Shown here: positions 10,401 through 53,729 of the stretch, one piece after another | Position numbering within the stretch: the stretch's first letter is position 1 | Layout of the letters: each line of letters opens with the position of its first letter | Source: Sialis fuliginosa | Lineage: Eukaryota > Arthropoda > Insecta > Megaloptera > Sialidae | DNA length: 64,000 nucleotides | Assembly: GCA_961205875.1 (NCBI GenBank) | Contig: OY540816.1 | Span: forward strand, 15,386,701 to 15,450,700 | Direction: 5' to 3' | Program-made: the position numbers and the translations under genes | The notes under the pieces: generated by a model | Database searches by the model: none | What the model saw: only the letters and a program-made list of their open reading frames with translations | Told to the model about the DNA's origin: nothing

Positions 10401-12995
10401 ACGAAATCAAAAATTCGAAATTTTTTAGTGGAATTTCCTGCAGTGAATTTCAACTCGTCATATAAATATCAACTAAAATACAAGAAAATAAGACGTAGAG
10501 GTATTATAGTTTTATAATTGAGCGTGTAAATTAATATTAAATGTTATTTTTGATTTTTGGTTAAAATGTTTGAGTTGCGCATAAAGATGAATATTCTAAT
10601 AATATTTTTAAATTATTTATTAATAGTAGCGTCGATTTATCTGAAAAACGGCTGTTTCGTGAAATCTCTTAGTAGTGAAATTTTTTTGACTAAATCGCTT
10701 GATTTTGGGTTCAAGAATATGTGTGTAAGTTTTCCGGATTCTCAGTGCCCCGGAACAGGGTCAAAAATGTCTTTGTTTATAACAAATTAAGGTTTTTTAA
10801 CGATAGTTCGGCTAATATTTTGAATATTTTTTTTTTTAATATGAGATGATGCGCTAAGAAAATACAAATAAAATGACACTAGGTAGAGGTTAAAAGGTCA
10901 TTCCGTTCACCCGTAAAAAAATAAAAACCGCGGAAAACACGATATTTTTAAAGTTAAGATAAAAAAATAAATAAAAATCTTAATTTTTAAAAAATATCTT
11001 CAAAATATAGCTTTTAACGGTATAAACTGATATGCAACATCTCATCTCATAGTTTTTGTTTAAACGGCCAGAATAAATAAATTACGAAAATTTTTGAAGG
11101 TCAAATTCATTGGGTGCAAATACTGTAGGGCCAAAAATATTTTTTTTAAAATGAAGGTTTGAGAGAATACTATCAAAATGTAAAAACGTTATTTTTTCAA
11201 TTACTCTTTGACTCTCTGAAAACCACCCTCAAAATTTGAATTTTAAATACTAATAAATAAGTCTACAATTCATGTTGCCTTGGAAACAAATGCAGTTAAA
11301 TTTAAATTAATAAATAAATAATTGTATTTTTATTGTTTATAACAAATTAGATGCATTTATATAAAGATATCATTGCATATTTGAATTCTACGGAAAAAAA
11401 TAACCGGGTTTAAAAAAAAATACATCTCTCTACGTCAAAAATTGGCCAAGTTATTCATTTTTTACTAATTGTTAAACATATTAACCATAGGAGTCACGTG
11501 ACCACAAGTGAAACGAGAAAATTAAAGGCGTACAGTTAAATCGTTATTACATTTGGTAAAATCACTGTAAACAAATTTTTCTTGACATATGAGATAGACA
11601 GATGCTTTAGGAAGCTACTTACTCAAGATTCAAGTCAAAATGTTAATTTGTTTATTAACAATTGGAAAAAAACTAAAAACATGAATAACTCATTGAGGAA
11701 TCAATACTAATTTATGTTTTTTTTTGGTACTGTTGATCTTGTCAAATGCTATTAAGTGAAAGAAAATACAAATTTTTTCAAGCAATATTAAGGGGTTAAA
11801 CTGATATTTGTTTATTACAATTTATAAACAAATAGCAAAAAAGGGTCAAGGAGTAATTGAAAAAAATAACTTTTTTAAATTTTGATAGTACTCTCTCAAA
11901 CCTTCATTTTAAAAAAAATATTTTTGGCCCTACAGTATTTGCACCCAATGAATTTGACCTTCAAAAATTTTCGTAATTTATTTATTGTGGCCGTTTAAAC
12001 AAAAACTATGAGATGAGATGTTGCATATCAGTTTATACCGTTAAAAGCTATCTTTTGAAGATATTTTTAAAAAATTAAGAGTTTTATTTATTGTTTTATC
12101 TTAACTTTAAAAATATCGTGTTTTCCGCGGTTTTTATTTTTTTACGAGTGAACGGAATGACCTTTTAACATCTACCCAGTGCCATTTTATTTGTATTTCC
12201 ATAGCGCATCATCTTATGTTTTTAAAAAAAATTTATTCAAAATATTAGCCGAACTATCGTCAAAAAACCTTAATTTGTTATAAACAAAGGCATTTTTGAC
12301 CCTGTTCCGGAGCACTGAGAATCCGGAAAACTTACACACATATTCTTGAACCCAAAATCAAGCGATTTAGTCAAAAAAATTTTACTACTAAGAGATTTCA
12401 CGAAAAAATATAATTCGACGCTACTATAACTGAAAACACAGATTTGTATTAATTTACCCATAAAGTAAGGGAAGCACTGCTTCCCCTGCTTCCATGGACG
12501 CTTCGCCACTGTTATTTGATCTGTTTTGAGAAGTTTTCGTAGAATATTTTGTTACGAATTCTTCTAAAAGTTTGAAGTACATTTTGTTATTTGTTTATAT
12601 TTTGTTTTAAGATGCACATATATATTTCTTAGAAAGAACTAATTTTATTACAATATTTATAAAATTTGGGGAATTAAAGTCGTCTTCTTATAATATATAA
12701 TTTAATTATTTATTTTTTGTAGAGCATCTGCAAATGGTATCATAAGAATACCAGCATACTTATTTTCAATATTTTTTAAGATATATTTTGAATCGCAATG
12801 CAGTTACACTTATTGGATTTATGGTCTTGTTATAGGAGGTAATTATTAAAGTATTTTTTAATTAAGTTTCTAAAATCAAATAGTATGTATAATTCATCAA
12901 ATACTAATAATAATGGATTTAAAATATTTTCAGGTTCTTCCCTATTAGTTCTTATATTGCCAATAAAAGGCAGTTATTATCCATTGGTGGAATAA
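4414..12995 (+). CDS. SV2/SLC22-like major facilitator transporter, complete, 11 exons
   Basis: Exons are 4414-4450, 4510-4671, 4765-4927, 5106-5227, 5330-5474, 5553-5646, 6645-6829, 7769-8013, 9128-9302, 12723-12838 and 12934-12995. All use GT-AG borders, and the phases add up to 501 aa, the normal length for the family. The protein is a string of hydrophobic helices with the MFS loop motif GYLMFGFFADIYGRKG near residues 71-86 and a second GRK motif (TIDTIGRKF) in the C-half. SPRYLLMKEYYLETVDVLRK (about 208-227) is the loop after helix 6 typical of SV2-related carriers. It should be a plasma- or vesicle-membrane transporter; the substrate cannot be told. Exon 9 has tandem acceptors six bases apart, and only the distal one keeps the frame open. 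The large introns hold MITEs, including a 2.9-kb hAT insertion in intron 9. Confidence 0.88.
5746..5974 (+). mobile_element. Degraded copy of the 230-bp hAT-type MITE seen at 16313-16542
   Basis: This stretch of intron 6 of the transporter matches 16313-16542 over its whole length, in the same orientation (shared blocks such as TAACATAATGGTGTAACAT and GTGAGAGAGATG). Its left end is eroded and no target duplication is visible, so this is the older copy. Confidence 0.65.
5990..6110 (+). repeat. Possible 3' tail of a retroposon (LINE or SINE type)
   Basis: The segment has the wording typical of insect non-LTR 3' tails: a stretch resembling a 'gaaaatcggttaagtagtt' protein-like remnant followed by ACAAACAGACAGACAAA. 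There is no full element around it, and no terminal duplication was found. Confidence 0.3.
6122..6539 (+). mobile_element. MITE related to 34286-34782, with a damaged left end
   Basis: The sequence from GGCACCAGTTATGGCC to CCAGTACCTT matches the element at 34286-34782 in the opposite orientation, including the 20-base block GTGATTGACGGGCTTCTTTT. The left terminus lacks about six bases (TACTGG) relative to the intact copy. Confidence 0.65.
7200..7709 (+). repeat. Dispersed retroposon-like repeat, copy 1, with microsatellites
   Basis: Related copies occur at 13187-13440 and 39366-39508, all on the plus strand and all ending in the same block (AAGCTTCTCGTATCTTCGAT, then ATGGCGAGGAAG). The body holds GGGACCATCCT..AAGCCAGAC and a CAGACAGACAGA run preceded by an AC microsatellite (about 7532-7556). 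Shared 3' ends with ragged 5' ends fit a SINE or LINE tail. The family is not recognised. It lies in intron 7 of the transporter. Confidence 0.55.
9380..9593. mobile_element. hAT-type MITE, 214 bp
   Basis: The inverted ends are CAGAGCTGTAACTA and TAGTTACGGCTCTG (13 of 14 complementary). The flanks CCTCGAAT (9372-9379) and TCTCGAAT (9594-9601) agree at 7 of 8 bases, as in an 8-bp hAT target duplication. It lies in intron 9 of the transporter and has no coding capacity. Confidence 0.75.
9770..10498. repeat. Near-perfect long palindrome inside the hAT-type element
   Basis: The left arm starts CTACGTCTTATTTTCTTG and the right arm ends CAAGAAAATAAGACGTAG. Each arm is about 360 bp, with only a short centre near 10105-10165. 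The same palindrome is kept in copy 2 (41021-41765). RNA spanning this intron would fold into a long hairpin. Confidence 0.85.
10624..12426. mobile_element. Nested 1.8-kb palindromic (foldback) transposon with 3-bp target duplication
   Basis: The ends are TAGTAGCGTCGA and TCGACGCTACTA, perfect 12-bp inverted repeats that lead into arms of about 590 bp each, with a loop of about 620 bp (roughly 11213-11838). TAA flanks both sides (10621-10623 and 12427-12429). The other copy of the host element has a single TAA at the same point, in TTATTTAACTG read in the same direction, so the insertion and its 3-bp duplication are shown directly. A 3-bp TAA duplication is used by PIF/Harbinger elements, but these ends are not typical of that group and I leave it unclassified. 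It has no real coding region. Confidence 0.85.
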
Positions 12996-13186: not shown

Positions 13187-13440
13187 TGCTAAATTCACCA
13201 AAAATTTGGGGATGTTACCCCTTCTCCTTGCACACGATTTTAATGATTTTTAAATGGGACCATCCTCAAGCCAGACCCAACCAACAAACATTTGTGAGAC
13301 AAAGATTCGAGGAAAAGACAAACAGACAGGCATACACAGAACGACAAGTATTTGTTTTGAATAAAGTTTTATCAGAGAATATTTTTTTATCATCTTAAAA
13401 CGATCACAAAGCTTCTCGTATCTTCGATATGGCGAGGAAG
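13187..13440 (+). repeat. Dispersed retroposon-like repeat, copy 2
   Basis: This matches 7200-7709 from TAAATTCA onward (GGGACCATCCT, AAGCCAGAC, CAGACAGGCA) and ends in the same GATATGGCGAGGAAG block. It lies about 190 bp after the transporter stop codon, so the transcript may read into it. Confidence 0.55.
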
Positions 13441-13562
13441 CAATATAGTATAATGATATTGATTGATAATAAAATCAGAAAATACGTTTGTGAGTCAGTG
13501 TCGTACTGTGAGTATTTCTATCTGAAGCCAGCTGACTTTTCTTGCATCGAATATAAGTAAAA

Positions 13563-25190: not shown

Positions 25191-25510
25191 ACTTGGCGCG
25201 ATCCTACAGACTCAAACTTTCTTTTAAAATATAGCTTACACAATGGTGTAACTTTAAGAGTGTCATGTGCCCTAAAACCGTCGCGACCCCTTTTCCTTAT
25301 TAAAAACAAATTAAAACTGACAAGTTAACAAATGAGTTAAAAAGTTAATAGCTCAGTTTGGCGCGATCCTACAGACTCAATTTTTTTTTAAATATAGCAT
25401 TCACCATTAACTTTAAAAGTGTCATGTGCCCTAAGACCATCGCGACCCCTTTCCTCTATTATAAACAAATTAAATTTAGTAAATTAACAAATATATTGAA
25501 TAATTAAGGT
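25191..25510 (+). repeat. Tandem duplication of a ~165-bp unit
   Basis: Two diverged copies (25191-25355 and 25356-25510) share TTGGCGCGATCCTACAGACT, GTGTCATGTGCCCTAA and the ACC.TCGCGACCCC block in the same order. It ends about 370 bp before the start codon of the large gene, so it lies in its 5' leader, first intron or promoter. Confidence 0.7.
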
Positions 25511-37800: not shown

Positions 37801-40800
37801 CGTTGTTGCTCTTTTTTAACATGATTAAAGAACACAGTATTCGGAAGCTCCAACAGATGTAAGTTGTAAATTGTACACTTCATTGCTCACCGACTTCATG
37901 TTATTTTTTTGCGTAGTGCTTCAATCGTACAAAGTAATTAACGTAATTTGATTTTAAATAATATTAGACACGTATTAATTCGATTTAAAAATAACTCAAA
38001 GTCTAATAAAAACGTCAATTTCTTTAAGTGTTTTTATATAAATTATAGATAATTGTTTTGACTCACGTATAAAAATTTACAGTTGTTTACAATAAATTAG
38101 TGTTTTGTTTACAGATGGAACAAATGCAGGCAGTAAAAGTGAGAAGTCTTTAGAACAAAGGATATCAGCGTACTCGGATGATGAAGAAAATAGAAGAGAA
38201 CAAAGAAGAAGTAAATCTTTGGACGATACGATAGCTGATTTTTCTTCGCAAAATTTAAAGGTTGGTACATAAATCTCACAATTTTTTTTATTATAATATT
38301 TTATCAACTATAATATCTATAATTTCAGGATGAAGAAAGTATATACTATACAAAAAATTGGCAGCAAAAGTCGCACAAAACGCCGTGGGGTAAAGTTAAA
38401 GATATTATTCAAACGAGGAAAGATAGTTTAAAAAAAGCTAAAAACAGATCAAGTATAAAACTGGATGAAAGTCCTATACAAATAGGAAAGCAGGATAATC
38501 CTCCAGGATTGAGTCACACGCGAAAGAAAAGTGACAGTGCTACTGATTTTTGTTCTCTGTCGTATGAACACGATGATGTATTCGAAAAACTTGACGTTCG
38601 CGAAAAGAAACAAAATCCACCAAGTCTGACCTTGACCATTCCTTCTAGTGAAGCGAAGAAGGATGAAGAAAGTGAGAAAATTTCAGGTAAAGTATATTGT
38701 ATATAAGTATATAACTTCGAAATTAAAATAATAATAATTTGCAGGTGAAATAAAAATGATTGAGGCAAAAATTGTAAAAGAAGAAAGTAAGAAAATAGAA
38801 GGGTCTAGTAGGACTTCTTCTTTTCCTGATGAAGATGTTCAAGAAGATGAAAAGTATACTGAAATAATTAAAGGAGATAAGGTAGAATCAAATATTAAGT
38901 TTGTTCTTCATGAATTGTAAATATTACAAACAAATTAATTAAATTTACTTCCTGATTATTTTAATATTAAATAATAATTCTCTTTATTGTTTACGAGAGT
39001 GTAAAGTTAAACATGTATTTACAGAAGAATTTAAGAAATATATTACATTTTTTTAATTAATAAGGTATTAACTCATTATAAAGATATTGTAAGTATAAAG
39101 TAATTGGCAATAAATTAATGTAGATTTTTTTATTTACAGACGCCGGCAAAAACGGAAAGTAGAGAATTAAGTCATTCACCTCAATCCAGACGGAATTCCA
39201 AATGGATGCTGGTGAAAAAAGCATTTTTAAATAAACCAGAAGAAAACGAAACAAGTCAAAACTCAAAAATGATCTGCAGTCCTTCTATTATGTCGACATC
39301 CATTCCTTCAAGTCCATTACAAGACTCATCATTCTTTTCTGATAACGGTATGTAACTTTAAAATAGACTTGGACATATACACAAACAGACACACAGGAGA
39401 TAGACACGGAACGAAAAGTGTTTGTCTTGACCTGAAACGGAAAGATCAATTTTTGTCTAATTCTAGAACGATCACAAAGCTTCTCGTATTTTCGATATTG
39501 CGAGGAAGTAAAAGTACAATGTCTGACAAAGGAATCTTAAAAAAAAACTTATATTTAATTATGCATCCGTATATTTGTTTTCGGTTTATTAGTTATACAA
39601 ATAATAAAAAAATAATCACAAAAAGCCGTTATTTTATTAGTTAGTATCTATTTAGTTCTTCTTGTATATAAAATCCCAAATTGATACGGGATTTTGTGAA
39701 TTACACTGCTTAAGACTGTCGTTGAAAGTTTTTATAAACTCAAATAATTGTTTTAGATTTGACGGTAAGCAGTTGTTGATTTTAACAACTTCATTTTTAA
39801 AATCTTGAATAATCGTCGATACCATTTTGTCGTACATCCAAAGTAACTGATTAAGATAATTGGAAGACAAATTTATAAATCCCATCATACAAGCCGCATC
39901 GTTAGGCTTACAGTATTGTAAAACATTCTTCATAAAGTTATATGTTGCACTCATCTTTTCCTTGTATTGGTCAACAGAAGTCTTGGCTGTTTTTGCGAAT
40001 TTTGTTAAACCATCCATGCATGGTTTAAATTGTTCTAAAATTTGAGAGAGTATTTTATCCGGATTTACTTGCTGTTTTGGAGGTGCTTGAGTTGGTAACA
40101 TCATTATTTTATTCAACATCTGTGATTCCAAAGGAATTGCGGTAGGTACAAACATCGTCGGTTGTTGAGCTGAAGTTTTTAGCAAACCATTAACCATTGG
40201 CAAAAGTGTGGTTTGAGGTATCAGTGGGGAAATTTGAGGGATTGCACCGAAATGATGAGAAAATGTATGTGGGATATTTGGTGAAATCATTGGAGAAATC
40301 GGATGAAAAGCGCCAAAAGTATTTGGAAAGGGTTGTGGAATCATTGGAGAAATTGGAGGATACCCACCAAAAACATTTGGATGCATTCCTCCATAGAAGT
40401 AATTTAAACCAAATGGATATGTCCTCGATGTTTTAGCTTCTTCCGTAGGAATTGCACTTGGACTGGGTGTGTCTGGACCTTTCTGTACCTGATTTGGGAG
40501 AGCAGATCTTTCGTCATAACCCATAAGATGGGGTATATATACTCCATTTTGTCCAGAAGCATTCTGTAAACATATATTATGTATTAATGTTTTTAAAGTT
40601 TCCCAATACCCTGGAATCTACCAATTAGCACGAATAATGTGTGGCTTTAGAAAGAATTTTTAGAAAATATGCACAATAAGATGTTGAAATTTGCAAAGTA
40701 TTCGTAAAACTTTATAAGGTTCATCAGAATATAATTTAACTAGTTACTAGAGCGTTTAATTTAACTAAATCTAATTATCTTTCAGTACTAGTTCATAATA

Positions 40801-43800
40801 ATTGATATAAGTCAGTGGCGAAGCGTCCATAGAAGCAGGAGAAGCAGTGCTTCCCTTACTTTATGGGTAAATTAATACAAATCTGTGTTTTTCAGTTAAT
40901 AAATAATTTAAAAATATTATTAGAATATTAATCTTTATGCGCAACTCAAACATTTTAACCAAAAATCAAAAATAGCATTTAATATTTATTTACACGCTCA
41001 ATTATACAACTATAATACCTCTACGTCTTATTTTCTTGAATTTTAGTCGATATTTGTATGACGAGTTGAAGTTCACTGCAGGAAATTTCACTAAAAATTT
41101 TTGAATTTTTGATTTCATTAAAAGTATGTTTATTGTAAAGAAAAAGTCGTAAAAAGTTGAAATTTTTAAACCGCAGGTCTGTATCTCAAACCGTTCTTGA
41201 GATATAGCCTCTCAAAGTTTCAGTTTTTTCCAAATTTTTAAGAAAAATGGCCATAACTTTTGAACGGATGGTCGGAATTAATTTTAGTTGACGGATTTGG
41301 AATCAGCGCGTTAAAATCTATATAATGGCATGTATAATACCTTAAAACTCGAAAAAAAAAAATTCGTGAAAAATCGAAAAAATTCAAAGGGGTATACCTT
41401 AAAAAAATGTCGATTTTTGACCAAATTTTTTTTATCGGATTTTAAGGTATTATACATGTCATTATATAGATTTTGACACGCTGATTTCAAATCCGTCAAT
41501 TAAAATCAATTCCGACCACGCGTTCAAAAGTTATGGCCTTTTTTCTCCAAAAATTTGAAAAAACTAAAACTTTGAGAGACTATATCTCGAGAACGGTTTG
41601 AGATACAGACCTGCGGTTTGAAACAAACAACTTTTCACGTCATTTTATATACAAGAAACATACTTTTAACGAAATAAAAAATTCGAAATATTTTAGTGAA
41701 ATTTCCTACAGTGAACTTCAACTTGTCATACAAATATCGACTAAAATACAAAAAATAAGACGTAGAATCATTTAGTTACTATATAAATATATAAGAATTT
41801 ATTTAAAAAAGTAAAAGCTTGAACTTAATGTGTTTCATAACTAGTTTTTTTTGTTAATAGGATGGAGAGGATTGACAAAATATGCTTCCCTTATTAAAAA
41901 TTTCACGCCTCGCCACTGATATAAGTTCATACTTATTTAATATATACTAGGTGTTAAAGATCACTACTGTACATAGGGATTTCAAAGTTATTTCATCCAA
42001 ATATTTCCATTTCTGCGACAAATTCGTGAGTATTTTTTTCTTGTAAATTTGTTCCTTCACTGTTAGAACAAAATTTTGTTTTAGAGTTAGCAGTTAAGCC
42101 ATCAACAGCAACAGTTTTTACAAATAATGATTGATTCTATTTTTTGTAACTTATTACTTCTGTTGGCCTGTATTGCATAATATCGATCTGACAAAAAATT
42201 TTATCAAGCGTCTTTGCAAGAAAAATGTACTTTCGTAAGTACATTTTTCTTGTAAATATTGTGACCAATTCGTATTGGTTACAATATTAATAGGAGACTA
42301 AATATTTGAATGTATTTGAAATTATATCCATACCGTAGTGAAATTTTACACCCGCTTAATTTTTTATTCCTATTTTAAATTTCACGAGAAACTCTAATCA
42401 CAGAACCTCAAAAATCCACGAAACTCCATTAAAACACTATTAGTTTTACTAAATATTAGTTAATATTATTTTTAAATTATAATATATAATAATAATATTT
42501 CTTATGGATGTCATAAGTGTTTTTATTATAAAATTTAAACAATACTTAGAAACAATGTATCACAATTACCTGAACAATTAAAAGTAAACCAAAAACAAAA
42601 AACGAATCCATATTTTAAAACAGAATGATATAATAAATTGAACAGATAGCTTTTTATACTATTTTTATTCCTATTCAATCTTAATTACCGTATGATAATT
42701 GTAAACAATGCCTGAGAAAAAAAACTATTATCGTATGTAACTCATGTAAGTGAATTCCAAAAATGTGAATTATACTAAATTTAGAATTAGCAAAAGATCA
42801 AACAGAGGTGTAATTATTTTCATTTTGGGATTTATCTAATTTTGTGGTATCTTCAGTTTACGGTTTCAAATGATTTCTTTAATATGAATAAAATATCCAG
42901 TTTCTGAAATAGTTTTTTTTAATTATCTACCTTTGAATTATATTCTGAGTTTTATTAATAGTTTTATAATATAGCTAAGTTTTTGAAGTTATACTTCCTT
43001 AGTCGCGTTCTGGGTGAAATTTTAGTAAAACAATGGAAATGAAATGCGCGTTGCAACGATGTGCACGCACCATACAACGGAAACAATTTAATACTATGAA
43101 GTTAGGTTAGGTGTAGATTTTACGGCTAATACGCAGGAATGGGATAATTTGCAAAAAAACTGGCTTAGATGTAAATTATATAGACGTCTTGGTTAATACA
43201 CGAACACATTCAAGTTTCGTAAATTAGACTTCACTAACTTAACAGAAACAAATCAACCTAAACAAGGACAGTTAACTTGTATATATATTATTATATGCGA
43301 ATAATTCTTAAAATATGTTTTTCATGCCACATATTCCAGCTGCCTTGGTTATTTTGTTTATTTGCGGCTAGAATGCATAATATCACATTTCGTCATAGAT
43401 AAAACAGATTTCTGTTATGATAGTAAGTAAAACAGGTTTTTAGTTTTACATTTACACGCTAGATGTCACTACGTTAAAGAAGTATAATTTCTAATGCACA
43501 TACATAAGTACACACACCCACTTTTTTTTAATGCTTTCCATATAAAAAGTATTTTTGAGAATTTTACTGTAACATATGACGAAACATTGGCTGATAAGCA
43601 TAATTTCTATATCATGTATACATATACATAATTTTTAATCCATCACTGCTACAATGTAATTATTTTATTGATTTTTTATTTAATTAGAGATAAACAAAAA
43701 TATTTCAATTGGTTTCCCATGAGAATGATTCAAAATAAAGCGGAAACAGTTTTACAAAGATCATAAAAAATATACATTATAAATAATTATATACGGGACA

Positions 43801-46800
43801 ACTAACTCATATACAATGTATAAAAATAATTAATTATAATGTAATACAATATATATTACAGTAGCGACTCGTTCTGAATAAAATCTACATATAATAAAAA
43901 AAAAACGAAAAAATTTGGAATAGTATATTTTTTAAATAGTTTTAGAATTTATACTTTTCCGGCCTCTGTTAAATTATTTTTGTTTTGTTTATTTTCACAT
44001 ATATTACTATGTATAAGTAGACATTGCGACTCTTAAATTAGATATAGTAGGATACACGCTGTCACTGTAAGCGTTTTGACTATTTAATTAAATATTGCAT
44101 ATTTTATTTATTCGAAGATGCATTAATCTAATAAATATTTGTTTATTAAGAAAGATATAGAAGTAATTAATTATTTACTAATTAAAATATTTTATCTAAG
44201 CGGAGGAGGGAATATTAACTTTTACTGCTTACAATTGTTTTATTTGTAAATAATTAAAATACGAATATAAAATTGAAGATTGTGATAATATTTAAAATAA
44301 TTGAAACTTAATAGTTATGAAATCAATTAAAATTTTTGAGTACTTTATTGTATGTACAAGAATCAAAAATATTAATCACAAAACAAACAGTCAATATAAT
44401 TAGGTGTATAAATAAATTCCCGTGTTTTTTTTCTTCAAAATATTATAAAATAAACAGTATAAATATTTCCATTAAAATATTTTCCTTCCGAATCTCATTT
44501 TTTGCTACCTTTCAGACCTCAATGTAAACCATTGTCTGGGGAACAACCCACAATATCTCGCGTTTGGAATAGATCTTTCGTCTTCTGTTACAATTTGTTG
44601 CAAAATATTTTTTTGCTGTGTAAATGCGAGAAAATTGTCTAAATGCTATGCACAAAGCTCCTCGGTTAACTGAAGTGGTACTCATAGTCTTTTTGTATCT
44701 TTCCCAGTGCATACAATCGATTGGAAATGGTGGCTTACGTCTTTCCAAGTTTTATGGCAAGTTCTTGTTGCATTTGTGCCTAATTTTTTTTCCAGAAGTG
44801 GGAACTTATTTTTATTTTTGGGTTTTATTCCGTGTAGCTCTTTTATTTTTAAGAAGTGACTTCACTTTAGAAAAAGATCACGAAATGTCAAGTGCATCAA
44901 AAGTTTGACTTTTAAGCAATTTTAAATACAGTTAATGACGTTAAAAATAGCAACTATCACTGTTTTTAATGTTTGTCTTAATATCGATAGAAAATGGTGT
45001 ATGAATGATGAAATTTTCAAGGATACAGATGATGACGTAGGTTGTATTAGAGTGTTTGAAAATTGTACAAAAATATACATTCAAAATATTTACAATATCT
45101 CGAAATACTAAACGATAGTTTATTAAAATATGTCAGAAGAAGTAGGAATTGAAAATATGACTATTACAAATCTAATTACACATATGTTTATCCCGAGCGT
45201 AGTTAGTATTATGTAAACAATTTGTTTGTGAATTCTGTATATTAAACAGGGCCGTACACAGTATTTGTACTATTAATAAGTATTTTATTTATTTTTATTA
45301 AATTGCAGATGCTACTTTTGATGCATATAGTAATGAAGTAACAAAATGCAAACATCGTAACGACGGTTCATGTATGAGGGCAGACAGAAAATTACGCGAA
45401 GAAATACAAAAAAATTACGAAGACCTGCAAAATAAATTGAGTTTGGAATTTAAAGAGAAACTTCAAGAATGGGAACGGATAAAACAGAACCAATCAAATA
45501 TAGGTACAGGAGCTTCAGGTATGCTAAATAACAGTCGTAAATTATGCTTTTAACGCATTTTTTACTGGAAATATAAATTAAATTAAAAACTAAATACATA
45601 ATATTAATTTCATTCATTTGATATACAGGCACTTCTCCATCATCATCGATAATAACAGAGGACCATAGCATTTACCATCAAGCAGTATATCCAGATGTTG
45701 AGTTCCAAAAGAAAATAGATGAATGGGAACGTATGAAACAGCATCAATCTTTTCAGGGAACAAAGTCATTTCCATTAACACCTTTAAGTTTAACTAACGA
45801 GGAGAATTTATCAGCTGATTTTAAAAAGAAACTGCAAGAATGGCAAAGAATGAAGAAACTTGGAACAATAGCGAAAGAAGAAACTTCAGGTTCATCAAGC
45901 CCTATTCAGCATTCATCATCTAAAAAGAAAATTACAGACTGGCAATTCTTTAAACACGGAGTAAATGTTGGTGCTAGTACTTCAAAATCTGATAACAGGC
46001 AGCTTGGATCTATGGATACAAAACAATTGAGTGAAGATTTTTTGAAGAAGTTAGAAGAGTGGAAGAAAATGAAAGCTACAAACACAGTTCCAAGTTATAC
46101 GGGAGATGATGAAGAGCAAGGAAGCAATCATACATCGGTGAAAAGGAAAGAATTTTCTGGAAACTGGAAGTCTCCAAGGCACAGTTTGAAAAAGTCAAAG
46201 ACCCAGGATGAAAAAGAGTTACAATGGCTTGATAAAGAATTGCAAAAAATAGAGAGAGAGAAACAAAGACTGGAAAGAGAACGGGAAAAATTCTTGGAGA
46301 GAGATGAAAGGTTAGTTAAATTTGTTTATATCAGTTATGACTCATTGTTAGTTATTTTTTGAAATATTATGTTATTTTTTTATGATGTAAGCACATGACA
46401 AAGTGATTTTTCTAAACAGAGGTGTTACATTTTTTGGACTATTTTAGACTATCAAAATTAAGACGATCAGTCAACAATGGAGACCAGAAGAAAGAAGTTT
46501 TAGTACAAACCTCAACAGGGTTTTATAGGTTCCAAGGTATTTCTAGAAAGTTCACACAGCGATTATATGAATGGGAAAAAGCACGCGGTATTCGACCAGA
46601 AGAATCAACATTGATGTTGTTGAATCCTCAGTACAGATCATTTGTTGGATATTCTCCTAGAATGAGCATTTCAAAAGAAACTACAAACACTGGTAAGTTA
46701 ACATTATTTCAAAATAATAATGGTAGCTAATAAAACTATTTAAATTGTATTTCAGATTCATCCTTACCAGGTATAAAACTAACACGTTCTAAATCAGTAG

Positions 46801-49800
46801 ACAGTATTTCTAATTTCACGCAACATTGTGAGTTGAGAGCATCAGAAATGATTCATCATCCGTCGAGCTTATCTCTGAATGACGTTGAAGAATTGGAGAA
46901 ACAGTGCCTTCTAGATTCACGTCCTACATCCGATCCAGATAGATTGAATGACCCGGATGATGATGATGATGACATGATACAAGAGAGCTGTAGTGATAAA
47001 GAACCTGAAGCGATGATTGTCGATGTTGAAGATATTGTTGAAGAGACGGCGGCACCTCTAGATACGGGGGCAAATATCCGTGGGGTTACACATCTTCCAG
47101 TGTATAAAGTGGCACAGCAAGATGTTGATACATTGTGGTATGTATTATTATTATTTTGTTAAGTAATTGTACCTTTATGATTGTTACATTAAGTCGTAAA
47201 ATAAGATCATTTTTATTATACTGAAAGTTGAATTTTAAATAAAATTGTATTTAAATTTTTATTTTAATTTTAAGTGAAACTGAACAATGTATATCACCAA
47301 AAATTAAAGAAAGTAAAGCAATTGGTACACACTCGAGTTACCATATAATAGAAGAAAATATTCAACTTCTAAAGAGATTAAAAGACAAAGAGGAAATCTG
47401 CCAACATCTTGAAACAACTATATGTAAACTTCAAGATGATATTCGTGCGATTTTGAGAAAAAAGAAGCAGGAAACCGGTAAAATAATAATGTTATTTATA
47501 TGTGTTATATTATTTTAAGAATACTTTATAGTTGCAGACGGAAATTCAAGAACAAGTTCTCAAACTGAAAATAAAAGTAACAAAACATCAAAAGATTTGG
47601 AAAGGAAACGACAAGTGCTGAAAACTGAAGGAGTAACATTACAAGTAATTGAATATAATATGTCAATGCCCAAAACGACTAACACAGATTTTGTTGATTT
47701 TCTAACTTTTCAGATAACAAATTTTATATTTTGGATTAATTGGTATGGAATGTTTATATTGTTATATTTTTACAGAATTCTTTTCGAGAACATTCAGCAC
47801 AGCAGCTAGTATTGGCGAAATATTTAGTTGGAAGTATGAAAAAATTACGAGAAGCAAACAATGCTGTGGCAACAGCTGCAACGCCTAAAGAACACGAAGA
47901 TTTGACTCAGGCCAATGATAGATTTGACGAAGTAATTGATTTGGTGCAGGATTTATCATCAGAGTTGTTAAATATGGTAATTATAAAATAACGATGAGGT
48001 GCATGTACATATGTACATACATAAAATAAAACGTAATATTTTTTAGTCCGAGAAACTTGAAATTGCATTATCAGCAAGGGATTCTGAAATTCGAGAATTG
48101 TTGACGAAAAAATTCAAGGCAGAACAATCTTTGGGCCAAACATCATGTGATGAATCTTCAATAGACGATTTAGCGTATTTGCAGTATAGTGAAGAATTGC
48201 GCGAAATTCCAACACTCCTGATGAATAAAATTTTAGAATTAAAAAGAGAATTGAGTTATCTTTGTGCTGCTTCAGGTAAGACAAAAATCTACAAGATAAA
48301 TATTACTATACGAATAAAAATTCCGTATTTGAATATTGGCATTTTAAAATTAATACTGTATACATTCTTAATTTGAATTTTTTTTAAAGATATGACTGCT
48401 CCACGAAAAGAAAGAAAAATATTATTCGAAGAAAATCAATCTTCAGAAAAACCTAATGATTCGAAAGAATATCGTTCAACAAATGCCGAAAGAAAAATAG
48501 AAAAAAGCGATTCAGTACCAAACGTTACGATAACTCCAAAATTTTTAAGGAAACCAAAGATTATTACAATTGATGAATCTTTACATGAAGCAAGTAAAAC
48601 GAAGTTACCCGATTCTACTGACGATGAAGTATTTCTCGAAGCTAAATTGAGTTTAAAAAAACCAAGTGTTGTAAATAATGAATTTACAGAAGCTAATTTA
48701 ACAATAAAAGAAAATCCAGAGTCAGTAAGAGTAAAAACGTGCAGTAACGGAGTGGTTAAACGTAAAACAAAAACTAGGTTAAAGAACAATTCAAAAATGG
48801 ATGATGATAGCTGTAGCGATGGGGAGAATAATATTTCCAAGAAAACTGTTAAACCAAGGAAAAATATAAAATTGAAGAAAAATAACGATGGTAAAAAATC
48901 TGATTCTCCTGAATTGAAGGACAATACGAAACGAGAAAAATCTATCGAAAAACGTGATGAAACAAATGAAGAAAAACCAGAACCTATTATTATAGTCCCT
49001 GCTTGTCAACGTTATGTAGAATTATCAAAATCAAACATTGTACCTGAATCCCCTGTAGAAATCTTTGTAAAGACTACTAGAAAATTATTTGGTCCGATCG
49101 GAGAAGAAATAAGTGCTAGTCCAAATAAAAACACTAAAGAAATATCTGTAGAAAAATGTATCAAAGAAAACACTGTATGTATGGAAGAAAAACTATCTGT
49201 ATCGAATATAAGTACATGTAGACATGAAAAAGAAATGATATCAACAGAAGAGAATAATACAAATATCAATAAAGATGTAATGACTAAAAATACTGAAGTT
49301 GAAACTTGTAGCAACGAGTTAAATACTCAAAACCAAAATAATGAGAATGAATATAGGGAAAATATATTACCGTCAATAATACCAACTAATCTCCAAACCA
49401 ATAAAATATGTAACATTCAAACAACTGCCAGTCTACCTCCACTCCCACATTCTCCAACTCCATTGAGAAGAGATCGCCTTTCTTCGAAAGAAACGGCACC
49501 GAGTATCCGGATTATGATTGCACGTTATAATCAACGTTTGACGGAACAAGAAGGAGGAAAATCTCCTGGAGGAAGTAGTGGCTCTGCTTCTCCAGTAGCA
49601 TGGCGATCACCTGTAGCAGAGAGGAGAGTTAGAGCTCAAACTGAAAAATATCAGGAAGAAGTTAAACGTGTACTGCAGCAAGGTGGTGGTTCAAAATATT
49701 CCCCAAAATGGTTGGGAATACAAATAACTAAATCAGCCAGTGCTGGACTTATTAAAGTTTCCGATCTCAAACCAGACCAAACAACAAGGAGAGCATCTGT

Positions 49801-50758
49801 TGAAAATGAAGAAAGTAAAGAAAATAAACCGATTCAACAACCAAAGCAACTTTTAAAAGGTATATTGAAGTCATCCAGTGCGGGTTCGCTCAAAAGTGAC
49901 AGAAATAAGACAATAAAAGAAGAACAGAGTGATAAACAAATAGAAGAAACGAAACTTACTGATTTACCAAGCCCTACTTTACCAGAGCGTATAAAAGTTG
50001 AGAACATTCCACCTAAAATTATACGTAAATACGAAGGAAAACCCTCGTCTCCCAAAATACCTTCTTCTCCTGATTCGTTAGGAAGTCCTTTATCTCACGT
50101 CAGGGCACAAAGAATTCAACGTGCAAAAGAAGAATTCCTGACAAGACAAATAAATGTACCGGATGATGCTATTTATTGTAATATTGTCAGCGAAAGAAAA
50201 GATAAAACATCTCCTGTATCAATTCATCACGAAACGAATAATGGTAATTTTGATCGAAATCGATTGAGCCAAATTAGTTGTGGCAGCGATACGAGCTACG
50301 ACTCTAATGCTGACTGTGTTTTGATAAAATCTGCAAGTGCTGGAATGATTAATGTAGATGCAGATACGTACAAAAAGCTCTCATCTTCAGAACAACATAC
50401 AGATGGCTACGTTTCCTTACCACGAGCAAGTAAAAGTCAGAAAGATGTTCCGAGTAATAGTAAATTTGGAATATCAAGTATAACATCTAAATTTCGTAAA
50501 GTAAAAATGAGAAGAACTAAAGAGAAGGATTCTAGTAAAATGAATACAGTTTCTTTATTGTGTAGACAAAGTTTGATGGTCGACATTAATGATAGTGGTA
50601 TTGAATATATTCAGACGGATTCTATTAGTTCGAATAAGAGTGCTTCCAGTTCACCAGTGTTAAATAGACAAGAATCTAAAGATAACAATTCACAGCCTGG
50701 TACATCTTCAACTTCAACAAGTTGGATAAAAAAATCAAGATTATTTAAACAAAAATGA
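25877..50758 (+). CDS. Large scaffold-like coiled-coil protein, 2,207 aa, 15 exons
   Basis: Exons are 25877-26823, 29732-29931, 38115-38260, 38329-38686, 38745-38881, 39140-39347, 45309-45518, 45629-46310, 46448-46692, 46756-47137, 47275-47477, 47538-47644, 47776-47976, 48047-48275 and 48390-50758. All borders are GT-AG and phases agree throughout. I do not recognise the family. Visible parts are a coiled coil (118-175); three W..VK basic motifs (KWTKVKAAFKWEKAS near 270-284, TPWGKVKDII, SKWMLVKKAF); five Fxx(K/R)(L/I)xEWxxxK units (about 712-725, 760-773, 800-812, 873-884, 998-1010); a charged coiled coil (928-963); an acidic DPDDDDDD stretch; coiled coils near 1190-1240 and 1290-1350; and a long disordered Ser/Lys-rich tail with three KSxSAG motifs (near 1865, 1912 and 2065). 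It has no signal peptide, membrane helix or enzyme domain, so it is probably a cytoplasmic adaptor. Further 5' non-coding exons are possible. Confidence 0.85.
26824..28309 (+). other. First coding intron of the large gene, left part
   Basis: Non-coding intron DNA upstream of the hAT-type element at 28318. I see only A/T-rich sequence and short G/C runs, with no gene. Confidence 0.4.
28318..29027. mobile_element. Non-autonomous hAT-type element, 710 bp, with perfect 8-bp duplication
   Basis: AATGGTAT is repeated at 28310-28317 and 29028-29035. The ends are TAGGGTTTGTAATCC and GGATTGTAAACCTTA, imperfect inverted repeats of the TAGGG hAT type. Subterminal regions are GC-rich (ATGCGGATCCCGCA, CCCGCGGGAA repeated twice). 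Inside, 28553-28567 (TACCGTATATACCGG) and 28833-28847 are exact inverted 15-mers around a segment starting with an AAT microsatellite, possibly another nested insertion. It lies in the first coding intron of the large gene. Confidence 0.75.
31838..32132 (+). repeat. Pair of direct repeats (about 60-70 bp each)
   Basis: 31838-31906 and 32076-32132 share the order TAACG.CAA.ATACACACAT, a T-rich run, then CA.ATCTATGG and CAGTACCT. An inverted ATCATGTGTGTATGTT lies just before the second. They may be ends of one degraded element. Confidence 0.4.
32435..32908 (+). mobile_element. pogo/Tigger-type element relic, 474 bp, with transposase N-terminal fragment
   Basis: The ends are CAGTGTAACCTTAATATAAC and GTTATATCGAGGTTGCACTG, inverted repeats of the kind found on pogo/Tigger elements, flanked by TA on both sides (32433-32434 and 32909-32910). 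Around 32668-32785 the plus strand encodes GIAEKQKRCSLTVAKKREII and KYVDENATTKKIDIATF, the N-terminal helix-turn-helix of pogo transposases. The frame then leaves the family and stops. Most of the transposase, including the catalytic DDE domain, is missing, so this is an internally deleted copy. Confidence 0.8.
33069..33950 (+). repeat. Retroposon-like repeat, copy 1
   Basis: It starts ACTAGCTGGGCCCACGCGAC, continues TTCGCTCGCGTGGACTACGG, and ends with a CAGACAGACAGACAGAGAGA run and TATATATATTAAGGATAAGG. This is the layout of a widespread insect retroposon tail (RTE-type LINE or a SINE using it). An inverted shorter copy lies at 36115-36364. There is no reverse transcriptase frame. Confidence 0.6.
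34021..34280. mobile_element. Probable hAT-type fragment
   Basis: It starts CAGTGGTGGCCAACCCTCGG, a typical hAT terminus of the CAGTGGT-CCAACC kind, and is GC-richer than its surroundings. The opposite end was not found before the next element at 34286, so it is probably truncated. Confidence 0.4.
34286..34782. mobile_element. TA-flanked MITE, 497 bp
   Basis: The ends AGGTACTGGCACCAGT and ACTGGTGCCAGTACCT are perfect inverted repeats, flanked by TA on both sides (34284-34285 and 34783-34784), as in Tc1/mariner elements. A damaged inverted copy is at 6122-6539. No coding region is kept. Confidence 0.7.
35011..35246. repeat. Foldback repeat, 236 bp
   Basis: The left arm (TGTTTATTGTGTTTCAAAAC to GGTAGTTCGGGATAATCC) and the right arm (about 35165-35246) are inverted copies of about 80 bp with few mismatches, around a loop of about 70 bp. 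No coding and no clear target duplication are seen. Confidence 0.7.
36115..36364 (-). repeat. Retroposon-like repeat, copy 2 (inverted)
   Basis: Read on the minus strand from 36364 it starts ACTAGCTGTGCCCGCGGATT and follows 33069 onward through GGACTACGGAATTATTGTTT to the CCCTCTGCCC block. It then runs into unrelated DNA, so it is a shorter copy. The block at 35990-36060 next to it (CATCCATTAATTACGTAAGG, then CTTACG) is a separate small repeat remnant. Confidence 0.55.
39366..39508 (+). repeat. Dispersed retroposon-like repeat, copy 3
   Basis: It shares GACACGGAACGAAAAGTGTT, CTGAAACGGAAAGATCAA and the final AAGCTTCTCGTAT..CGATAT block with 7200-7709. It begins about 20 bp after the donor site of exon 6 of the large gene. 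Confidence 0.55.
39652..42611 (-). CDS. Secreted Pro-rich/five-cysteine helical protein, 317 aa, nested in an intron of the large gene
   Basis: Exon 1 (42611-42570) encodes MDSFFVFGLLLIVQ, the core of a signal peptide, and exon 2 (40563-39652) the rest, in phase 0. I do not recognise the family. Residues 65-135 are Pro-rich with three imperfect repeats built on FG..P.ISPMI (GGYPPISPMIPQ, GAFHPISPMISP, GAIPQISPLIPQ). The C-terminal half (about 180-305) is amphipathic and probably helical, with cysteines at 196, 232, 239, 279 and 301. The spacing C-x35-C-x6-C-x39-C-x21-C matches the gene at 52782-53666, which also has a 14-codon first exon. A TATAAAAA box lies 40 bases upstream of the ATG, and AATAAA (minus) occurs at 39633-39638. 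The intron holds a hAT-type element. Probably an extracellular structural or secretion protein; the function is unknown. Confidence 0.8.
40813..41918 (-). mobile_element. Non-autonomous hAT-type element, copy 2 (1,106 bp)
   Basis: The ends are CAGTGGCGAAGCGT and ACGCCTCGCCACTG, flanked by perfect 8-mers ATATAAGT (40805-40812 and 41919-41926). Orientation is opposite to copy 1 (9643-12511). It keeps the same long palindrome (41021-41765) but lacks the nested 1.8-kb insertion, so it gives the empty site (single TAA). It sits in the intron of the nested secreted-protein gene, itself in an intron of the large gene. Confidence 0.9.
42217..42287. repeat. Twin perfect hairpins with identical TCGT loops
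   Basis: Hairpin 1 (42217-42252) pairs CAAGAAAAATGTACTT with AAGTACATTTTTCTTG around TCGT. Hairpin 2 (42256-42287) pairs ATATTGTGACCAAT with ATTGGTTACAATAT (one G-T) around TCGT. They are four bases apart, in the intron of the nested secreted-protein gene. Function unknown. Confidence 0.7.
42651..42658 (-). promoter_or_regulatory. TATA box of the nested secreted-protein gene
   Basis: TATAAAAA on the minus strand ends 40 bases before the ATG at 42611, leaving room for a very short 5' leader. The paralogue at 53666 has the same box at a similar distance. Confidence 0.6.
42659..45308. other. Remainder of the intron before exon 7 of the large gene
   Basis: AT-rich, no supportable gene. Overlapping short open frames at 44512-44908 on both strands have a faint resemblance to a decayed transposase and are not called. 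Confidence 0.4.
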
Positions 50759-52781
50759 GATATTGTTTAAAATCTGAATTACTGAATTTATCAAAGAATG
50801 ACTAGGTATTAGAAGGAAGATAATTACCAATGTGTAGTTGAGGAAGCTATTTATAAAAAATAAATAAAGACGTCCAAGAGAATTTGCTTATTATACAAAA
50901 GTTGAAATTCCAAATGAAATGATCACAAGCTAATTATAATGAGTGTGAGAATTGAAAGTACGTAAATATGCTTGCTAGTATTTTTTAATAGTGAACAACT
51001 AAAATATTTCTTGCAATTGTGATAATTACATTAAAGTAAATAAAATCTGCAGTTAATTAGTTAATGGTTGATTCACTTTCATAGTATTTTTAAATTTTAA
51101 AAATTATTTTGGTGTTATATGGCTTAAGTTATCTAAAATAAAAAAAATTATATAATTTTAGTATGCCAATACAAATATTATCTATCATACCTATAACATA
51201 ATTATAGGTATCACTTGGAAATAGGATACAAAGATATTATTTAAGTATTGATAAGGTAATAATATTTTGGTCTGTATTCTAGTACATAATTGCCATACTT
51301 ACTAATAAAATATTTAATTAATATTGATATTTATTATATGAAAAAGTGTTTTAGTTTTTTACTTACTTTATTAAAAATAATAAATAGGTGTATAAAATAT
51401 AATGTACACAATAAATAATAATTTTAAGAAGTTATATTTTTCTTCTTTATGTTTTAGCTATACTTTATATTACAGTATTAAATTATTAATAGTAATAAGT
51501 AATACATGCATAACAAATATTAAATCTAAGAACAATATACTAGAGCAATTATTATAGTACTTTGTTCTTTTATTTTTTCTATGAATAGGATTCCAAAGGA
51601 AAATAAATAAATAATAAGGAAAACAGTTTGCAAACTTTAACTTTATTACTTTACATACATACATATAATTTATAATAAATAAAAATATAAGAACAATTAA
51701 TCTTGTTTGTATTATTTATTTGTTAATTTATGTTTTTTATACAGTTTCTATACTCATAGTAAGAGTTTATATAGCCTGAATCGATTTCTAGTTGATTGTA
51801 GTAGCTAAGTCTCAGCCACAGCCGTATTTTCTGATTTTACCAATCAATATTTTTAAATATACTCCATACATACATACAATACTTTAGTATTAATTATAAT
51901 AATTTAATAATTTCTAAACTATCGATTCAAAAAATCTGAAACAATTCCAGAATGTATTATAGCTTTTAATTACTACTTTCAATGAAAATTGTAACGAACA
52001 CTAGTAAAAATAGTTTATGAAAACATTTGAAAGAATTCTTTTATAAATCGTAGTGAGAACCCTATCATGCACTTGGCCGTTTTATTTATAGTAGATGCCA
52101 CTAAAATAATAATAAGATTTTGTAAATAAAATTCGCATGCATTTTTTTAAATTTCTAATGCGCTCAGGATAAGTAAAAGATTTGGCAGCACCGTTGTAAG
52201 GTGTAGTATAATCATATAATCAGTACCAAGGGTGGGGCGAGGCTGGACGACCACCTAAAGCGCCAGGCTAGGAGGGGCGGCGGACGGACACACGTAGAAA
52301 AACAAATTCGTAAAATTATTAATTTAAAAAAATATTACAAGCATTATAATTTGGAGATGATAAGGAAATCTAATAGGTTTTCTTACGGAAAGATATAAAA
52401 TTGTATTGTCATTAACTGTTTAAATTTCGAACTACGTATTAAAAACGAAACATTTGTACCTATAAATGTTGGAAAAAAATGAATAAATTATAATCGAATC
52501 ATTTAATTAAGTGCCAATATTTGAAATATTAAAAAATGCATTTTTGTTAGTAACATTACGTATAATAAAATATAATTTTATTTCATAAAAAAAACTATTT
52601 AATATAAGTGTTTACATATCTGTAAATTTAACACCTACTAGAAATATGTAGATAGGAAACATGGAATTGTTACAAATTATTTTGTTTTCTGTTTATATGA
52701 ACTTTTCTTCACGTCTGATAGTAAGTTACTTCAGAATATTAAGGTAAGCAATGTATTTTAATATGTCTGAAAATATTGACT
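50759..52781. other. 3' region of the large gene and spacer
   Basis: This contains the 3' UTR of the large gene (overlapping AATAAA signals at 50859-50868, and another near 51039) and AT-rich spacer. A small GC-rich patch (GGTGGGGCGAGGCTGGACGA near 52230-52285) is of unknown origin. Confidence 0.5.
50859..50868 (+). promoter_or_regulatory. Polyadenylation signals of the large gene
   Basis: Two overlapping AATAAA hexamers lie about 100 bases after the stop codon at 50756-50758. Confidence 0.55.
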
Positions 52782-53666
52782 TCAAACTTTTGTTGATGCA
52801 CAATTTTCTATATTCTCAAGATAACTGTTTGCTATTGGCATAGTACGTTTTACTGCATTGAAGAAACAGAAATATCCATTTGTTATTTCGTCTAGTATAA
52901 TTTTTATTATCATCGAATATAACTGCTGTGAAAACTGAACAATATTTTCAATATAATTGGTAAACTCGGACATGTTCGATAAAACACATTGAACTGTTGG
53001 ATCATTTATTCCGATACAATAGTTTATCACTTCTCTAAGTCCTTGATAGATTTTTATAATGTCGTTTTGAACTGCGCGTATCATTGTAAGAACATGATTT
53101 CCTATTCTTGCAACGCTACTGCTACAAATACTTATACGTTGAATTATAACAAAAACTAATCTTCTTGTTGCATCGAGGTTTCTGTAAATACAGCTCCCAT
53201 ATCTGTCGATATTGGCTACAATTTTAATAATAGAATCTATAAAGTTTTGTGCAGCTAACGAGACGGTTTCCCTGTTAGGTTCAAAACGATTTAGTAAAGA
53301 AAAAGATTTTTGTTCTACGTTTCTTCCTGATCCTTGGGATCCTTGTAAATTTTCATTGGGTGAGTAATTTTGTAATGCTTTGATAAATTCACTGTTGTCT
53401 TGATATATATTTCGGAATGCTTCTGAGTTATTTCTATCTGATAGAAATTGTTGAATGAATGACGGAAATCCATTTATATTTTCGTTCGTTATATTGTGAA
53501 ATTGTAGAAATTCATTTTGAGCGTATCCATACTAAAAATAATAATAAAATAAAATAATAAGCCATTTTATTTAAAGTCTTTTTCAAAACGAATAATTATT
53601 ATAAAATGGTTAAGAAATAAATACCTGGATACCAAAAATTGCTATTAAACACACAAATAGCTTCAT
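52782..53666 (-). CDS. Secreted cysteine-framework helical protein, 263 aa, paralogue of the nested gene
   Basis: Exon 1 (53666-53625) encodes MKLFVCLIAIFGIQ, a signal-peptide core, and exon 2 (53531-52782) the rest in phase 0, with a GT-AG intron of 93 bp. The mature part starts with a polar Asn/Gln-rich region (about 20-90), followed by hydrophobic amphipathic helices. Cysteines fall at 128, 150, 186, 196, 236 and 258. The last five have spacing C-x35-C-x9-C-x39-C-x21-C, identical to the protein at 39652-42611 except for one gap. Both also share ND between cysteines 2 and 3 and NY(I/L) ten residues after cysteine 3. It lacks the Pro-rich repeats of its relative and has one extra cysteine. 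The exon structure, TATA box and orientation also agree, so common descent is likely. The function is unknown; it is probably an abundant secreted product. Confidence 0.8.
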
Positions 53667-53721: not shown

Positions 53722-53729
53722 TTTTTATA
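53722..53729 (-). promoter_or_regulatory. TATA box of the 263-aa secreted-protein gene
   Basis: TATAAAAA on the minus strand, 56 bases upstream of the ATG at 53666. A start site about 25-30 bases downstream of it would leave a leader of about 25-30 bases. Confidence 0.6.

What the first reader, a model, noticed from the sequence alone, without database searches (positions are those of the whole stretch)
39652..53666. Two TATA-driven secreted proteins share a five-cysteine framework not known to me
The genes at 39652-42611 and 52782-53666 look unrelated at first sight, yet the cysteine spacing of their C-terminal halves is C-x35-C-x6/9-C-x39-C-x21-C, exact at three of four gaps. Both have a 14-codon phase-0 signal-peptide exon, one long second exon, a TATAAAAA box 40-56 bases before the ATG, and the same strand. 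Such agreement is unlikely by chance and points to an old tandem duplication around the 3' half of the large gene. TATA boxes, short leaders and secretion suggest high, tissue-limited expression, for instance in glands or as egg, silk or cement components; this last step is inference.
Basis: partly seen in the sequence, partly recalled or inferred. Interest (0 to 1): 0.8.

Follow-up and report, generated by a model that had tools for sequence, protein, structure and literature searches.

The report
Two diverged TsetseEP-like secreted proteins

Summary
Both minus-strand genes have a 14-codon phase-0 leader exon and a long second exon. Cysteine gaps are 35-6-39-21 in A (39652-42611) and 35-9-39-21 in B (52782-53666). 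The pair is more alike than chance: 0 of 2000 shuffles, tblastn E 7e-5 in the window.

The framework is not unknown. The one Pfam family reported for whole A is DUF725/TsetseEP, at noise level (A C-terminus 15.4 bits against a cut-off of 22; B none). Probing that profile with shuffled, Cys-free and Cys-displaced copies indicates that it carries C-x35-C-x11-C-x39-C. A and B keep both long gaps and shorten only the loop. The gaps equal 10.0 and 11.1 helical turns, and A is predicted as two long helices. B's six cysteines are nearly symmetric about the loop, suggesting a three-rung disulphide ladder (inference).

Best reading: diverged TsetseEP-like secreted proteins, probably gut or peritrophic-matrix. 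Against it: the cut-off is not met, shuffles with the same cysteines score as well as A, and A's own hit is out of register. Formal membership is not claimed. Homologues, tissue and organism could not be checked.

The parts
42570..42611 (-). Gene A exon 1, 14 codons, phase 0: signal-peptide leader
   Evidence: ATG at 42611, donor GTAATT
39652..40563 (-). Gene A exon 2 with stop: Pro-rich middle, 5-Cys C-terminal half
39703..40020 (-). Gene A framework C196-x35-C232-x6-C239-x39-C279-x21-C301
42651..42658 (-). TATAAAAA upstream of gene A (first base 47 before the ATG)
39633..39638 (-). AATAAA after the stop of gene A
40564..42569 (-). Gene A intron, 2006 bases, enlarged by a transposon-like insert
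53625..53666 (-). Gene B exon 1, 14 codons, phase 0: signal-peptide leader
   Evidence: donor GTATTT
52782..53531 (-). Gene B exon 2 with stop
52800..53126 (-). Gene B framework C150-x35-C186-x9-C196-x39-C236-x21-C258 (a further C128 at 53190-53192)
53722..53729 (-). TATAAAAA upstream of gene B (first base 63 before the ATG)
39348..45308 (+). Intron (or introns) of the plus-strand neighbour gene that hold gene A antisense (donor GTATGT, acceptor TTGCAG)
   Evidence: by inspection; no RNA data

Best explanation
A and B are anciently duplicated, secreted, helical proteins built on the cysteine framework of the insect TsetseEP/DUF725 domain, but too diverged to pass that family's cut-off. Shown here: leader with the same 14-codon phase-0 exon; the same framework in A, B and, by probing, the DUF725 profile (x35 and x39 exact, loop 6, 9 and 11). 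Inferred: the domain is a long helical hairpin whose two helices are stapled by C2-C3 at the turn and C1-C4 one helix length away. The gaps are 10.0 and 11.1 helical turns, so indels would be tolerated in the loop but not in the helices. In B the extra outer pair C128 and C258, each 22 residues beyond, would add a third rung; A lacks the first of these, so C301 may be free or link two molecules. Also inferred: the proteins are made by a secretory epithelium, most likely gut, where such a stable rod (with a Pro-rich arm in A) would join or shield the peritrophic matrix or bind microbes.
For: Cys gaps and gene structure. Similarity of A and B above shuffles and in a window search. DUF725 is the only family reported for whole A (E 0.28) and the best of five for its C-terminus (E 0.019). 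Profile probing: hits in 6 of 10 shuffles that keep Cys and hydrophobic pattern, 0 of 10 without Cys, 1 of 10 with two Cys moved by 5 and then in another register, 6 of 6 with the loop set to x11, 0 of the same 6 with loop x11 and Cys moved. Real B with the loop set to x11: 16.5 and 17.0 bits for two lengths, in register, profile 22-115 and 24-115; not reported with Cys moved, Cys removed, the two residues put in the helix, or loop x13 (one copy each). Helices: AF2 of A two long helices 182-229 and 237-301, mean pLDDT 72. Four of the 4 long segments that I chose are amphipathic at 3.6 residues per turn, 0 of 1000 shuffles each. Literature, passages only: TsetseEP in the tsetse peritrophic matrix (PMC3998921), DUF725 in the Aedes peritrophic matrix (PMC5865745), a Tsetse EP gene among the three highest transcripts of the Anopheles proventriculus (PMC9113746), a beetle midgut TsetseEP-domain protein (PMC13308108).
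Against: Neither protein reaches Pfam's cut-off of 22 bits (A 11.6 whole, 15.4 C-terminus; B no DUF725 hit). E-values of this size are near noise: unrelated helical families follow closely for A (E 0.054 to 0.11), and shuffles hit unrelated families down to E 0.0023 and 0.00041. Real A's hit is out of register: it puts C301, not C232, on profile position 63, and losing C279 raises the score. With loop x11 real A still scores best out of register. Shuffles with the same cysteines score about as high as real A (14.2-20.3 bits in 6 of 6 against 16.8-16.9). Real B with loop x11 is beaten by 1 of 10 of its shuffles, and only 2 of 10 hit at all; native-loop shuffles of B gave 1 of 10, partial. So the evidence is for the shared framework, not for residue-level homology with DUF725. 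The cysteines sit 25 to 90 degrees off the centre of the hydrophobic face, and at 3.5 residues per turn the second helices are less clearly amphipathic (38 and 368 of 1000 shuffles reach them). B's model is poor (mean pLDDT 50). No expression data, no homologues, organism unknown.
Confidence: 0.57

Rival explanations
1. A and B are true paralogues of a separate, lineage-limited secreted family; the agreement with DUF725 is convergence, because stapled helical hairpins of this length need about these gaps.
For: Sub-threshold Pfam scores and no clear residue-level signal beyond cysteines and hydrophobic pattern; real A's own hit out of register.
Against: Two long gaps agree exactly (35 and 39) with a family that is also insect and secreted; moving cysteines by 5 removes the in-register match.
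Confidence: 0.28
2. The cysteine agreement of A and B is chance between two unrelated AT-rich secreted genes.
For: Only 16% identity; with Cys masked the similarity is modest (24 of 2000 shuffles reach it).
Against: 0 of 200,000 random placements and 0 of 2000 shuffles; same leader exon, phase and strand; a third, independent witness in the Pfam profile.
Confidence: 0.03
3. The proteins are gland, eggshell, silk or cement components. (This rival concerns the tissue and overlaps with the others.)
For: TATA boxes, short leaders, leader peptides; A's arm (residues 19-180) has 28 Pro of 162 and three degenerate copies of FGxxPxISP(M/L)I.
Against: B's arm has 3 Pro of 82 and no such repeat to the eye; Tandem Repeats Finder lists no array inside either coding region; DUF725/TsetseEP relatives in the passages read are mostly gut, peritrophic matrix or tubule proteins, though one Drosophila DUF725 protein is classed as a mucin and another, CG5767, appears in a fat-body data set.
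Confidence: 0.15

Closest known systems
Pfam PF05267 DUF725 (TsetseEP domain, InterPro IPR007931)
   Same: Secreted insect proteins; C-x35-C and C-x39-C gaps exact by probing; helical pattern; cysteine domain joined to a low-complexity arm, as in tsetse EP, whose 8 cysteines all precede the EP repeat (PMC2832768, passages).
   Different: Score below the curated cut-off; loop 6 or 9 instead of 11; a fifth cysteine 22 residues after the fourth lies beyond the profile's end; the low-complexity arm of A is before, not after, the cysteine domain.
Cb-TsetseEP of the leaf beetle Colaphellus bowringi (PMC13308108; abstract and passages seen)
   Same: A TsetseEP-domain midgut protein outside flies, itself diverged (the paper gives 20.7% 'homology' to its named relative and 19.1-48.6% to proteins of Diabrotica speciosa).
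Peritrophin chitin-binding domains
   Same: Secreted, disulphide-linked, peritrophic-matrix location (passages).
   Different: The ten-cysteine motif CX17CX9-10CX14C... quoted in PMC3998921 (passage) does not fit A or B; no Pfam hit.
Drosophila ACP53EA (Pfam PF06313)
   Same: Weak sub-threshold hit of A's C-terminus (E 0.8).
   Different: 10.4 bits against 25; also hit by a shuffled copy (E 0.086), so not specific.

Membership tests
DUF725/TsetseEP (PF05267) | Reaches the curated score (22 bits) | tested here: not met
   A 11.6 whole, 15.4 C-terminus; B none
DUF725/TsetseEP (PF05267) | Cysteine gaps x35 and x39 of the profile (positions about 27, 63, 75, 115, inferred by probing, not read from an alignment) | tested here: met
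DUF725/TsetseEP (PF05267) | Loop of about 11 residues between the middle cysteines | tested here: not met
   6 in A, 9 in B; in probes the profile prefers 11 over 6, 9 and 13
DUF725/TsetseEP (PF05267) | Residue-level similarity beyond cysteines and hydrophobic pattern | tested here: inconclusive
   A no better than shuffles; B with loop x11 beaten by 1 of 10 shuffles
DUF725/TsetseEP (PF05267) | Secreted, signal peptide | tested here: met
   Hydrophobic 18-residue leaders in both, seen by eye; no signal-peptide program was available
DUF725/TsetseEP (PF05267) | Gut or peritrophic-matrix expression | not testable with these tools
   No RNA or protein data held

The most novel reading that the evidence does not exclude
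The framework is a molecular ruler: TsetseEP-like domains are disulphide-laddered helical hairpins in which rungs are set about whole helical turns apart (22, 36 and 40 residues), with B keeping three nested rungs (C128-C258, C150-C236, C186-C196). The family then reaches well past its present Pfam limits into fast-evolving insect gut proteins that only the cysteine ruler still reveals.
Probability: 0.35. Interest if true: 0.5.

Novelty: new variant of a known kind. Interest (0 to 1): 0.33.

Why it matters
TsetseEP-domain proteins are linked to resistance of the tsetse midgut to trypanosomes (PMC2832768), and one in a beetle midgut was reported to interact with an insecticidal protein in two-hybrid and fluorescence-complementation assays (PMC13308108), yet the domain is still called 'unknown function' in Pfam. 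If A and B belong there, the family is larger and more diverged than its model shows, and the cysteine ruler gives a simple way to find hidden members and a concrete, testable fold.

Tried and rejected
Viral contigs and bacterial/archaeal genomes were scanned with the A-B alignment: 552 and 201 pattern matches, none a relative, as expected for an insect gene. PDB by sequence: 3 weak matches up to E 10, best E 0.088 (4n21, 'GP2 Ectodomain', 29 positions); rejected as chance helix similarity. Foldseek of A's model against PDB: 324 matches at E up to 10, 0 at E up to 0.001, top ones long helical bundles; uninformative. B's model was not searched because its confidence is low. Pfam hits such as FANCI_S2, DHR-2, DUF948, BAR_3 and CNP_C_terminal were rejected: below cut-off and of the kind that shuffles also give. 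An early idea that DUF725 has C-x21-C at positions 41 and 63 (from real A's hit) was dropped because losing C279 raised the score and losing the matching cysteine of shuffle 1 did too. DNA-level tandem duplication: no convincing match between the two loci, best 49 bases at 78% in AT-rich DNA. Two broader paper searches gave listings that I did not read further (6 papers each).
Full report
What is there. Gene A and gene B both lie on the minus strand. A has a 14-codon leader exon (42611-42570), a 2006-base intron and one long exon (40563-39652) and codes for 317 residues. B has a 14-codon leader exon (53666-53625), a 93-base intron and one exon (53531-52782) and codes for 263 residues. Both leaders end with a phase-0 intron after codon 14, and both proteins read Q-N at residues 19-20, just where a signal peptide of this length would be cut (by eye, no signal-peptide program). 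TATAAAAA begins 47 and 63 bases before the two ATGs. That word occurs 51 times in the window on both strands, against 37.5 expected, so its position upstream of both genes is mild support only. AATAAA lies 14 bases after A's stop; B has ATTAAA close and AATAAA about 200 bases on. A's arm between leader and cysteines (residues 19-180) has 28 Pro of 162 and three degenerate copies of FGxxPxISP(M/L)I; B's arm (19-100) has 3 Pro of 82.

The cysteines. A: 196, 232, 239, 279, 301 (gaps 35, 6, 39, 21). B after the leader: 128, 150, 186, 196, 236, 258 (gaps 21, 35, 9, 39, 21). B's extra C128 stands as far before the first framework cysteine as C258 stands after the fourth, so B's spacing is nearly mirror-symmetric: steps of 22, 36, loop 10, 40, 22.

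Is it more than chance. The C-terminal parts align with score 83; 2000 shuffles have mean 30.5, sd 5.4, and none reaches 83. With cysteines masked the score is 45, reached by 24 of 2000. Placing 5 and 6 cysteines at random gave the observed agreement in 0 of 200,000 trials. Searching the window with A by tblastn gives B as the best match outside A (E 7e-5, 16% identity); a profile of the two finds no third copy among 2036 frames. I conclude that A and B are paralogues, though the proof leans on the cysteines. No convincing DNA similarity is left between the two loci, so the duplication is old and its mechanism cannot be read.

What the framework is. Pfam-A reports only one family for whole A, DUF725 (PF05267, the TsetseEP domain), at E 0.28. 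For A's C-terminus alone five families are reported: DUF725 leads with E 0.019 and 15.4 bits, below its cut-off of 22, and other families follow at E 0.054 to 0.8. B has no DUF725 hit. Since the tool shows no alignment, I probed the profile. Ten shuffles of A's C-terminus that keep the cysteines in place and keep which positions are hydrophobic gave 6 DUF725 hits, 5 of them in the register that puts C196 on position 27 and C232 on 63 (read from the end coordinates). The same ten without cysteines gave 0 of 10. With the first and fourth cysteine moved by 5, 1 of 10, in another register that points to cysteines at 75 and 115. Single losses of either the first or the second cysteine removed the hit or threw it into another register in 6 of 6 cases (three shuffles); in one shuffle, loss of the third left it, shortened, and loss of the fourth removed it. 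This predicted a profile of C-x35-C-x11-C-x39-C. Test: six shuffles with the loop set to 11 gave 6 of 6 hits (E 0.00058 to 0.043), five of them running to position 116 or 117 of 121, although four of these six had missed before. With loop 11 and cysteines moved, the same six gave 0 of 6. Real B with its loop set from 9 to 11 matches in register over 22-115 or 24-115 at 16.5 and 17.0 bits (two lengths). It is not reported with cysteines moved, with none, with the two residues put in the helix, or with loop 13 (1 copy each). So the profile of a known insect family appears to hold the two long gaps of A and B exactly and to differ only in the loop.

What that does not show. The six shuffles with loop 11 score 14.2 to 20.3 bits against 16.8-16.9 for real A with loop 11, and real B with loop 11 is beaten by 1 of 10 of its own shuffles (2 of 10 hit). 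Native-loop shuffles of B gave 1 of 10, partial and in another register. Real A's own hit is out of register, with C301 on position 63, and with loop 11 the out-of-register stretch is still its best. E-values of this order are near noise: shuffles also hit unrelated families down to E 0.0023 and 0.00041; what counts here is the paired contrast between cysteine settings, not any one E-value. Thus the evidence is for a shared cysteine-and-helix framework; residue-level descent from DUF725 is neither shown nor excluded. As the cut-off and the loop length are not met, I do not file A and B as members; I describe them as TsetseEP-like.

How it probably works. AlphaFold2 with the two-row alignment gives A two long helices, 182-229 and 237-301, and a short one at 309-315, mean pLDDT 72, pTM 0.47. 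B has long helices at about 133-188 and 194-260, further helices before them, but mean pLDDT 50, pTM 0.34 (numbers converted to whole-protein residues). Only the secondary structure was shown, not the packing. The four long segments that I chose are amphipathic at 3.6 residues per turn (0 of 1000 shuffles each); at 3.5 the second helices are weaker (38 and 368 of 1000), and at 3.6 the cysteines lie 25 to 90 degrees off the centre of the hydrophobic face. Framework steps of 36, 40 and 22 residues are 10.0, 11.1 and 6.1 turns. This suggests a helical hairpin in which the second and third cysteines staple the turn and the first and fourth staple the arms one helix length away. That would explain why the helix gaps are exact and the loop varies (6, 9, 11). 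In B the outer pair C128-C258 would be a third rung; in A the partner of C301 is missing and that stretch is Pro-rich. The pairing is inference; no coordinates were available to measure distances.

Where it probably works. From passages of papers: tsetse EP protein is a gut protein found in the peritrophic matrix (PMC3998921) whose knockdown raises trypanosome infection (PMC2832768). A DUF725 protein is in the Aedes peritrophic-matrix proteome (PMC5865745). A Tsetse EP gene is one of three that together make up over a third of the Anopheles proventriculus transcriptome (PMC9113746). Protein TsetseEP is among gut transcripts that differ between two Ceratitis species (PMC6892911). A Drosophila tubule gene resembles TsetseEP (PMC3319558). 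A leaf beetle has a midgut TsetseEP-domain protein (PMC13308108). Not all relatives are clearly of the gut: one Drosophila DUF725 protein is a mucin (Muc55B, PMC2515642) and another, CG5767, appears in fat-body data (PMC6519815). By analogy, a gut or other lumen-facing epithelium is the likeliest site for A and B. This is inference; nothing here measures expression.

Surroundings. A lies antisense within what looks like one large plus-strand gene (donor GTATGT at 39348, next long exon from 45309; small exons between are not excluded); that gene's last long frame ends at 50758, and B lies beyond it, tail to tail. That these frames form one gene is inferred. A's intron is swollen by a 1106-base insert (40813-41918) with inverted ends and an 8-base target duplication ATATAAGT, also present near 9643-10623 and, in part, at 12427-12511.

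In print. Full-text searches for DUF725 (3 papers), TsetseEP (22 papers, 21 listed), IPR007931 (1), PF05267 (0), tsetse EP with domain-containing and beetle (2), tsetse EP with cysteine, helical and paralog (0), and two broader ones (6 papers each) gave, in the listings and in passages of ten papers, no description of this cysteine spacing or of a stapled hairpin. Most subscription papers, among them the 2004 paper that relates TsetseEP to a Drosophila gene family (seen only as a reference), are not held, so I claim no priority.

Verdict. A real and correctly read observation; an interpretation that is partly right; and a framework that appears to belong to a known, functionally poorly understood insect domain rather than to none.

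Noticed in passing
window 40813-41918: Transposon-like insert with inverted ends CAGTGGCG...CGCCACTG and 8-base target duplication ATATAAGT (hAT-like; label recalled), largely palindromic inside; related copies at 9643-10623 and 12427-12511.
   Followed up: partly
window 25871-50758, plus strand: Apparently one large multi-exon gene (joining inferred) with low-complexity and coiled-coil-like stretches; no Pfam domain above cut-off in the 7 frames of it that were scanned; it hosts gene A antisense.
   Followed up: partly
window 3426-3710, minus strand: Exon of a ubiquitin-conjugating enzyme (UQ_con, E 3e-20), UBE2Z-like by recall.
   Followed up: no
window 39373-39512: Stretch near the 3' end of gene A repeated at 7547-7713 and 13313-13455 at 71-74% identity; perhaps an old mobile element.
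   Followed up: no
window 25193-25492: Tandem repeat of a 159-base unit, 1.9 copies, just before the first long frame of the large gene.
   Followed up: no
window 42213-42256: Short palindrome in the intron of A, matching itself in reverse (44 bases, 91%).
   Followed up: no
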